The notes under the pieces: generated by a model
The model's input: the letters and a program-made list of their open reading frames with translations, nothing else
What the model was told of the DNA's origin: nothing
The model's database searches: none
Origin: Corallium rubrum
Taxonomy: Eukaryota; Cnidaria; Anthozoa; Scleralcyonacea; Coralliidae
Length of the DNA stretch: 64,000 nucleotides
Direction: 5' to 3'
Assembly: GCA_964035015.1 (NCBI GenBank)
Contig: OZ036002.1
Coordinates: 13,072,199 to 13,136,198, forward strand
Shown here: positions 37,676 to 37,908 of the stretch, one piece after another
Numbering within the stretch: position 1 is the stretch's first letter
Layout: the number at the start of each line of letters is the position of its first letter
Translations under genes and position numbers: made by a program

Positions 37676-37908
37676 AGTAGTTTTATAACTGCTTTGCATG
37701 GGGAAGAATGTTACAACAAAATGTTTGCGGATATAGGTAAAATATATTTATTCTGCCTCTTCCTCCGCTGAGCTTTCGTCCATAGATTGCTCTGATGATG
37801 TCCAGAGCAACATAGGACGAAAGCTCAGCAGAATAAATATATTTTACCTATCCACAAACATTTTATTATAACATTCTTCCCCATGGTTGTATCCACAAAC
37901 ATTTTACT
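37676..37908 (+). mobile_element. 233-bp insertion bearing a hammerhead-like core, ~14-bp target duplication
   Basis: It is flanked by ataaacagttcttt (37662-37675) and ataaacggttcttt (37909-37922). Copy C has one such site and no insert (about 63236-63250). Most of the element is a long hairpin (37697-37885) with arms of about 55 bp. A long target duplication with no short inverted ends suggests retrotransposition, as in Penelope-like elements or retrozymes. Confidence 0.75.
37792..37826 (+). ncRNA. Hammerhead ribozyme-like core
   Basis: CTGATGA (37792-37798) is followed by a stem II (GTCC/GGAC) and GAAA (37819-37822), then AGCTC. UC fits the cleavage-site rule (UH). Upstream TGCT and downstream AGCA can form the inner stem I, and a perfect 19-bp arm (gtaaaatatatttattctg) the outer stem I. 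Stem III is only the palindrome AGCU. This is the best-preserved core of the set. Confidence 0.65.

What the first reader, a model, noticed from the sequence alone, without database searches (positions are those of the whole stretch)
37676..37908. Young 233-bp mobile element carrying a hammerhead-like ribozyme
Flanked by a 14-bp direct repeat (13 of 14 matching) and absent from the paralogous site, so it inserted after the duplication. It is mostly a long hairpin with CTGATGA, stem II, GAAA and a UC cleavage site. Known: hammerheads occur in Penelope-like elements and in retrozymes. The palindromic AGCU stem III suggests it works as a dimer. It may be a very small, recently active retrozyme-like element.
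Basis: partly seen in the sequence, partly recalled or inferred. Interest (0 to 1): 0.72.

Follow-up and report, generated by a model that had tools for sequence, protein, structure and literature searches.

The report
Hairpin footprint of Penelope-type retrotransposon
This 233-base insertion is a small scrap left by a known class of jumping gene (a Penelope-like element) that carries a self-cutting-RNA motif; the motif is real by ancestry but probably inactive here, and sister insertions in the same animal genome suggest that such elements enter DNA from both sides at once.

Summary
37676-37908 is an insertion with a 14-bp target repeat (13/14), absent from the paralogous site. It is a long hairpin, and its hammerhead motif is not chance: a covariance model built without it scores it 69.9 bits, and a strict descriptor finds it alone in the window and nothing in 60 simulated windows. 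The best reading is not a young retrozyme but a non-coding insertion of a Penelope-like element (PLE): an inverted copy of the terminal-repeat tail joined to a direct copy carrying the minimal PLE-type hammerhead. Dispersed relatives end at two sites 36 nt apart; longer relatives carry remnants of a PLE ORF; a sister family (2297 hammerhead copies) flanks a 705-aa reverse-transcriptase ORF. Target repeats pass in 29 of 40 insertions against 156 of 8000 random boundary pairs. The insertion sits in six near-identical loci, so it is older than it looked, and its own ribozyme is weakened and locked in the hairpin. Most two-armed insertions have one 'long' and one 'short' end and variable inner joints, which fits priming from both target strands. 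A second such insertion lies at 9620-9755.

The parts
37662..37675 (.). left target-site duplication ATAAACAGTTCTTT
   Evidence: single copy at the empty paralogous site
37909..37922 (.). right target-site duplication ATAAACGGTTCTTT (1 mismatch)
37675..37756 (-). inverted arm: reverse complement of the element tail, starting at the 'long' end (TAGTAGTTTTATAAC)
   Evidence: aligns to ruler 312-227 on the minus strand, 90% identity
37757..37768 (.). 12-bp extra stretch inside the inverted arm
   Evidence: direct reading
37769..37781 (-). continuation of the inverted arm into the hammerhead (complement of GGACGAAAGCTCA), which pairs with the direct hammerhead in the hairpin
   Evidence: sequence; folds
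37785..37885 (+). direct arm: hammerhead region plus tail
   Evidence: ruler 184-290, 89% identity
37786..37835 (+). PLE-type minimal hammerhead motif; core CTGATGA 37792-37798, extra T 37799, stem II 37800-37803/37815-37818, GAAA 37819-37822, predicted cut after 37826
   Evidence: (69.9 bits, E 4.6e-16)
37886..37908 (+). short second tail piece ending at the 'short' end (..ATTTTACT[ATA]), joined at CATG: a template jump (inferred)
   Evidence: direct reading
63170..63359 (.). paralogous empty site
9620..9755 (-). second, independent insertion of a sister family (136 bp, same architecture, hammerhead at 9653-9701)
   Evidence: (57 bits)
9606..9619 (.). target-site duplication of the second insertion (minus-strand reading ATACTATGTTAGTT)
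9756..9769 (.). target-site duplication of the second insertion, other copy, identical

Best explanation
The 233-bp insert is a defective, non-coding insertion of a Penelope-like retrotransposon. A PLE reverse transcriptase/endonuclease cut both strands of the target about 10-14 bp apart. At each cut end reverse transcription began inside the element RNA, at the 'long' start site (ruler 312) on the left and the 'short' start site (ruler ~276, 36 nt nearer the ribozyme) on the right. The two short opposed cDNAs were joined, leaving an inverted tail followed by a direct hammerhead-plus-tail, that is a long hairpin. The hammerhead is the minimal kind found in PLE terminal repeats and would normally cut element RNA, perhaps as a dimer. 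In this copy one stem II pair of the family is lost and one is reduced to a wobble, and its 3' half pairs with the inverted arm, so it is most likely inert. Shown: insertion, target duplication, homology, end sites, inner-joint variability, PLE ORF remnants beside longer family members, a sister PLE with an RT ORF. Inferred: two-sided priming, which enzyme moved it, the ribozyme's role.
For: Empty site and target repeat. 73 matches in the window's own genome, dispersed. Outer ends of two-armed family-1 copies lie at ruler 312 and ~276, matching the PLE 'tail' of 30-40 bp between two RT start sites (PMC11167929, passages); distances from the A of the hammerhead ATG are 115 and 79 nt, against 111-118 nt published for the main start. 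The cut lies 26 nt after that ATG, as published for the Anolis PLE. Target repeats in 29 of 40 insertions, control 156 of 8000. Longer family-1 members carry ORF pieces 46-76% identical to the sister PLE's protein: L136/L164 (residues 426-578 and 618-701) between an inverted and a direct terminal repeat, and the units of the C8 array (residues 603-702 just before the hammerhead). The sister family, with the same core and an extra base at the same place, flanks a 705-aa ORF with RVT_1, 31% identical over 663 aa, GIY-YIG region included, to another PLE ORF of this genome (RVT_1 + GIY-YIG). That PLE has a descriptor-positive hammerhead with the same extra base beside its ORF start. Inverted terminal repeats with a tail on one of them are described for PLEs (PMC3846280, passages).
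Against: No intact ORF was found for family 1, only remnants, and none in the window. The frame from the hammerhead ATG closes at once (ATG ATG TCC TGA). Rfam hammerhead models do not match. 11 of 40 insertions show no target repeat by the criterion; L138 and L145 have a truncated end and L136 has two short ends. Covariation is thin: one double change, reached by 115 of 500 shuffles. Core invariance in A1 is not evidence, since rows were picked for CTGATGA and a GAAA-like word. No RNA or activity data.
Confidence: 0.95

Rival explanations
1. A metazoan non-LTR retrozyme: a small circular-RNA element with a type I hammerhead, moved in trans.
For: Size 233 bp, low GC, hammerhead, target repeats longer than 4 bp (PMC7229834, abstract, passages and section 13: coral retrozymes of 220-240 bp).
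Against: No head-to-tail monomers seen in the window or in the compact relatives read; two-armed copies are inverted repeats anchored at two fixed end sites with copy-specific inner joints; longer family members carry PLE ORF remnants. The one tandem array found (C8, ~1.45-kb units) carries a PLE ORF remnant in its units, as partial-tandem PLEs do.
Confidence: 0.03
2. A foldback or MITE-type DNA transposon with long terminal inverted repeats that captured a hammerhead by chance.
For: Palindromic, AT-rich, flanked by a target repeat.
Against: Target repeats vary in length (8-17 bp); the two ends are unequal by 36 nt; copies with one arm only exist (such as L130, L134, L146); inner joints vary; RT ORF or remnants in both families.
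Confidence: 0.01
3. The hammerhead resemblance is chance in a microRNA-like hairpin.
For: Mainly microRNA models match in Rfam at loose thresholds, and no hammerhead model does.
Against: Family members without the inverted arm keep core and stems; descriptor hits 0 in 60 simulated windows; same core and extra base beside the ORF of another PLE (L177).
Confidence: 0.01

Closest known systems
Penelope-like elements (Penelope/Poseidon type, GIY-YIG endonuclease; pLTR with minimal hammerhead)
   Same: Inverted and direct terminal repeats, 36-nt tail on one end, target repeats, hammerhead with cut 26 nt after an ATG, end sites 79 and 115 nt from that ATG, PLE ORF remnants in longer family members and an RT ORF in the sister family.
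   Different: The insert has no ORF and is only short opposed pieces; the frame of its hammerhead ATG is closed; no intact helper found for family 1.
Minimal hammerhead variants of PLEs and Terminons (PMC7761336, passages; Cervera & de la Pena 2014 and Lunse et al. 2017 seen only as cited there)
   Same: CUGANGA / GAAA / UH core, stems I and II, almost no stem III (palindromic AGCU), dispersed copies.
   Different: One extra base between A9 and stem II in the three families read here; whether published PLE hammerheads have it I could not read directly, though the published ATG-to-cut spacing agrees with it.
Metazoan non-LTR retrozymes (PMC7229834)
   Same: Size, low GC, type I hammerhead.
   Different: No tandem monomers seen; inverted arms; PLE-type minimal hammerhead.

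Membership tests
Penelope-like element (insertion derived from) | Terminal repeat ends at two sites 30-40 nt apart (tail) | tested here: met
   family 1: 312 and ~276; family 2: 411-414 and 372-388
Penelope-like element (insertion derived from) | Inverted and direct terminal repeats with target-site duplication | tested here: met
Penelope-like element (insertion derived from) | Family members with an ORF for PLE reverse transcriptase and GIY-YIG endonuclease | tested here: met
   absent from the insert and the window; decayed pieces covering part of the RT and the C-terminal (GIY-YIG) region beside family-1 repeats in L136/L164, L148, L171, L172; sister family L221 RVT_1, its GIY-YIG region by alignment only
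Hammerhead ribozyme | Core CUGANGA ... GAAA ... UH | tested here: met
   direct reading
Hammerhead ribozyme | Three stems closing the core | tested here: inconclusive
   stems I and II in family members (96.3% of cells paired); stem III only as an intermolecular palindrome; window copy predicted not to form them
Hammerhead ribozyme | Match to a curated Rfam hammerhead model | tested here: not met
   of 11 viral loci picked by a hammerhead pattern only one matched RF00163
Hammerhead ribozyme | Self-cleavage | not testable with these tools
   needs in-vitro transcription
Metazoan non-LTR retrozyme | Head-to-tail monomers of ~150-450 bp with a canonical type I hammerhead | tested here: not met
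   none seen in the window or in the compact relatives read
Metazoan non-LTR retrozyme | Circular RNA | not testable with these tools
   no RNA data

The most novel reading that the evidence does not exclude
These compact insertions are genomic snapshots of a coordinated two-sided PLE integration: both target strands prime reverse transcription, and the two strands as a rule use different start sites, one 'long' and one 'short'. That would explain why the PLE tail sits on only one of the inverted repeats. It differs from the published in-vitro result, in which start sites did not differ between strands (PMC11167929).
Probability: 0.5. Interest if true: 0.65.

Novelty: new member of a known kind. 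Interest (0 to 1): 0.45.

Why it matters
By itself the insert is one more PLE relic with a decayed hammerhead. Its relatives matter more. They give many small insertion products of PLEs, whose integration steps after the first cDNA are described as yet to be validated (PMC11167929, passage). Their ends, target repeats and inner joints make a two-sided priming model directly testable. The genome also holds 2297 close copies of one PLE-type hammerhead, a kind that Rfam models missed in every copy tried here.

Tried and rejected
Rfam at gathering and loose thresholds gave no hammerhead for the window or for the relatives tried. The models may need a stem III (my guess), so their silence was not taken as proof of absence. 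I first suspected chance plus a foldback, and dropped that after one search showed the core in dispersed copies. I looked for inner arm ends at the ribozyme cut site as a sign of cleaved template: in family 2 only L208 (333) and L210 (335) lie at the cut (334/335), 2 of the 8 fetched two-armed copies L201-L206, L208, L210; family 1 has L129, L131, L141 at 223 and the window's event at 227-229 (cut 225/226); not claimed. The copy count for family 1 by pattern did not complete.

Full report
CHECK OF THE OBSERVATION. The repeat ATAAACRGTTCTTT flanks 37676-37908 and occurs once, without insert, in the paralogous stretch 63170-63359. The insert folds into one hairpin far more stable than shuffles (z -17). 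Rfam finds no hammerhead at its own thresholds or at E<=10; the hits are mainly microRNA models. As a control, only one of 11 viral loci chosen by a hammerhead pattern matched RF00163, so Rfam's silence weighs little.

RELATIVES. The window lies in an unnamed 474-Mb genome (probably a cnidarian: my guess from the TPR-CHAT gene family; not tested). A DNA search gave 73 matches, 40 of 98 first-look candidates scored. Six places, the window included, are 95-100% identical and lie on one contig within 0.37 Mb; alignments over insert and flanks are 86-97% identical, so they are one insertion later copied with its gene cluster. The others are dispersed, at 69-93% identity. They share the motif TTGCT-CTGATGA-T-GTCCTG-AGCAACA-CAGGAC-GAAA-GCTC|AGCAG. 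A covariance model from 20 rows, with no row from the window or its contig, scores the window motif 69.9 bits, E 4.6e-16. Against this: rows were picked for CTGATGA and a GAAA-like word, so core invariance proves nothing, and covariation is thin (96.3% of cells paired, 27-51% when slid, but one double change only, reached by 115 of 500 shuffles). A strict descriptor (core, optional extra base, stems I and II of at least 4) finds one site in the window, this one, and none in 60 first-order simulated windows; it misses the second copy at 9653, which has a U-U at pair 1.1.

ANATOMY. Measured on a 312-nt ruler, the insert is the tail in reverse (312 to 227), a 12-bp extra stretch, a reversed piece of the hammerhead, then the direct hammerhead and tail (184 to 290), then by eye a jump at CATG to a last tail piece that ends at the second site, ~276. 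Other two-armed copies end at the same two sites, 36 nt apart. In family 1, 12 of the 14 insertions examined have one long and one short end (the window's short end by eye; L140 and L144 read, because picked a stray match); L138 and L145 have a truncated end. Outside that set, L136 has two short ends, and several copies have one arm only. PLEs have a 30-40 bp tail between two RT start sites, the main one 111-118 nt into the ORF, and a hammerhead whose cut is 26 bp after the start codon (PMC11167929, passages). Here the sites are 79 and 115 nt from the A of the ATG in CTGATG-ATG, and the cut is 26 nt after that ATG. PMC3846280 (passages) describes head-to-head inverted terminal repeats, a 31-bp tail on one of them, palindromes at the junction and target repeats for PLEs.

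CODING RELATIVES. A translated search with the proteins of L221 and L177 (below) over L121-L175 found decayed PLE ORF pieces next to family-1 repeats: in L136/L164, residues 426-578 and 618-701 at 46-68% identity, lying between an inverted and a direct terminal repeat; and in the ~1.45-kb units of the C8 array (L148, L171, L172), residues 603-702 at 46-76%, just before the hammerhead, the layout of partial-tandem PLEs. L161 and L151 have shorter pieces. The window has none. So family 1 is itself a PLE family, though no intact ORF was seen.

SISTER FAMILY. The covariance model also found 9653-9701 on the minus strand (57 bits). It lies in a 136-bp insertion, 9620-9755, with a perfect 14-bp target repeat, and is absent from two paralogous stretches. 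The family's hammerhead (CTGATGA-A-GGCCTG/CAGGCC) has 2297 copies within two mismatches in the genome, control 0. Among the first 100 listed places, exact matches on one contig, 24 neighbouring pairs lie within 3 kb: 22 are head-to-head (-+), 2 are +-, none is tandem. Two wide pairs were read: L221 holds a 705-aa ORF between its inverted and direct repeats, L222 a broken one. Both match RVT_1. The L221 protein aligns at 31% over 663 aa, GIY-YIG region included, with the 830-aa ORF of L177, which has RVT_1 and GIY-YIG. L177 has a hammerhead by descriptor beside its ORF start with the same extra base after A9. L222 has a perfect 13-bp target repeat; L221's lies in a simple repeat and counts little.

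TWO-SIDED PRIMING. The 17 compact family-2 insertions L181-L197 and the window's have one end at 411-414 and the other at 372-388 (18 of 18; L197 read without a stray 16-bp match), with 17 different inner joints (L186 and L191 share one). They were found with a query holding both arms, so their ends are biased. One search also listed 21 places matched only from base 53-55 on, that is by the direct arm; these are less biased, though some showed a second arm. I read 17 of the 21: L201-L206, L208, L210, L207+L176, L211+L213, L212+L214, L199+L217 and L200+L218 have both ends in view, and 13 of 13 are mixed (L200+L218 is complex); L209/L215, L198/L216, L219 and L220 could not be decided. L221 and L222 are also mixed. 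Target repeats pass in 29 of 40 insertions against 156 of 8000 random boundary pairs. The simplest reading is that each target strand primes its own cDNA and the two are joined in the middle. In vitro, a PLE protein cuts and extends both strands, with no difference of start site between strands reported (PMC11167929). The mixed-end rule would be an addition, if an unbiased count upholds it. That the tail is optional on one of the inverted repeats is already in print (PMC3846280). My searches for Penelope with twin priming and for pLTR with inverted and tail listed no paper whose title or abstract start states the rule; of the listed papers I read passages of PMC11167929 and PMC3846280 only.

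THE WINDOW COPY. Compared with its family, stem II pair 5 is lost (U-A to A-A, shared by the five other loci of its contig) and pair 6 is a wobble (G-C to G-U, in the window copy), and the strand GGACGAAAGCTCA is paired with the inverted arm. Predicted stem II probability is 0.0 in the element and 0.1 in the bare motif, against 0.76-1.0 in seven of the 11 relatives folded and 0-0.15 in four (L137, L140, L141, L153). The sister copy at 9620-9755 forms stem II fully and stem I partly (0.69). Self-cleavage of the window copy is therefore unlikely in cis; a dimer was not modelled.

VERDICT. A real insertion with a real, PLE-derived hammerhead, ordinary in kind. The retrozyme reading is not supported. 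Main gaps: no intact coding copy of family 1, no RNA data, and biased sampling of the end types.

Noticed in passing
window 9620-9755 (-), target repeat 9606-9619 / 9756-9769: Second hammerhead-bearing insertion, 136 bp, from an abundant sister PLE family (2297 hammerhead copies in the genome); not part of the finding given.
   Followed up: yes
window 15492-15542, 24541-24591, 52309-52359 (all -): Three paralogous, decayed PLE-type hammerhead relics (34, 19.7 and 23.2 bits; E 2.9e-6, 0.023 and 0.0027, so the last two rest on their paralogy with the first).
   Followed up: partly
L148/L171/L172 (contig C8, about 31.73-31.75 Mb): Array of ~1.45-kb units (spacings 1441-1483 bp), with a family-1 hammerhead and a remnant of a PLE ORF C-terminus: looks like a partial-tandem PLE turned satellite.
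   Followed up: partly
window 29657-33701 and 55843-59742 (-): Duplicated genes for long TPR proteins with a C-terminal CHAT (caspase-like) domain (Pfam run on the second copy); the first copy is in two overlapping frames.
   Followed up: partly
window 27632-28569 and 43181-44477: Tandem arrays of about 66-bp and 53-bp units by self-comparison offsets; the first is open in several frames over 146-372 codons.
   Followed up: no
L177 (C49:7324000-7327400): EN-containing PLE with 830-aa ORF; GIY-YIG hits 2710 bp apart suggest a tandem; hammerhead with palindromic ACAUGU stem III beside the ORF start.
   Followed up: partly
L176 position 788 (+) and the minus strand nearby; also L147 (-): Hairpin repeat CTGACGAAGGGCCTTCGCTCGAAACG inside or beside these elements: a CTGANGA word with no GAAA in the hammerhead place; origin unknown.
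   Followed up: no
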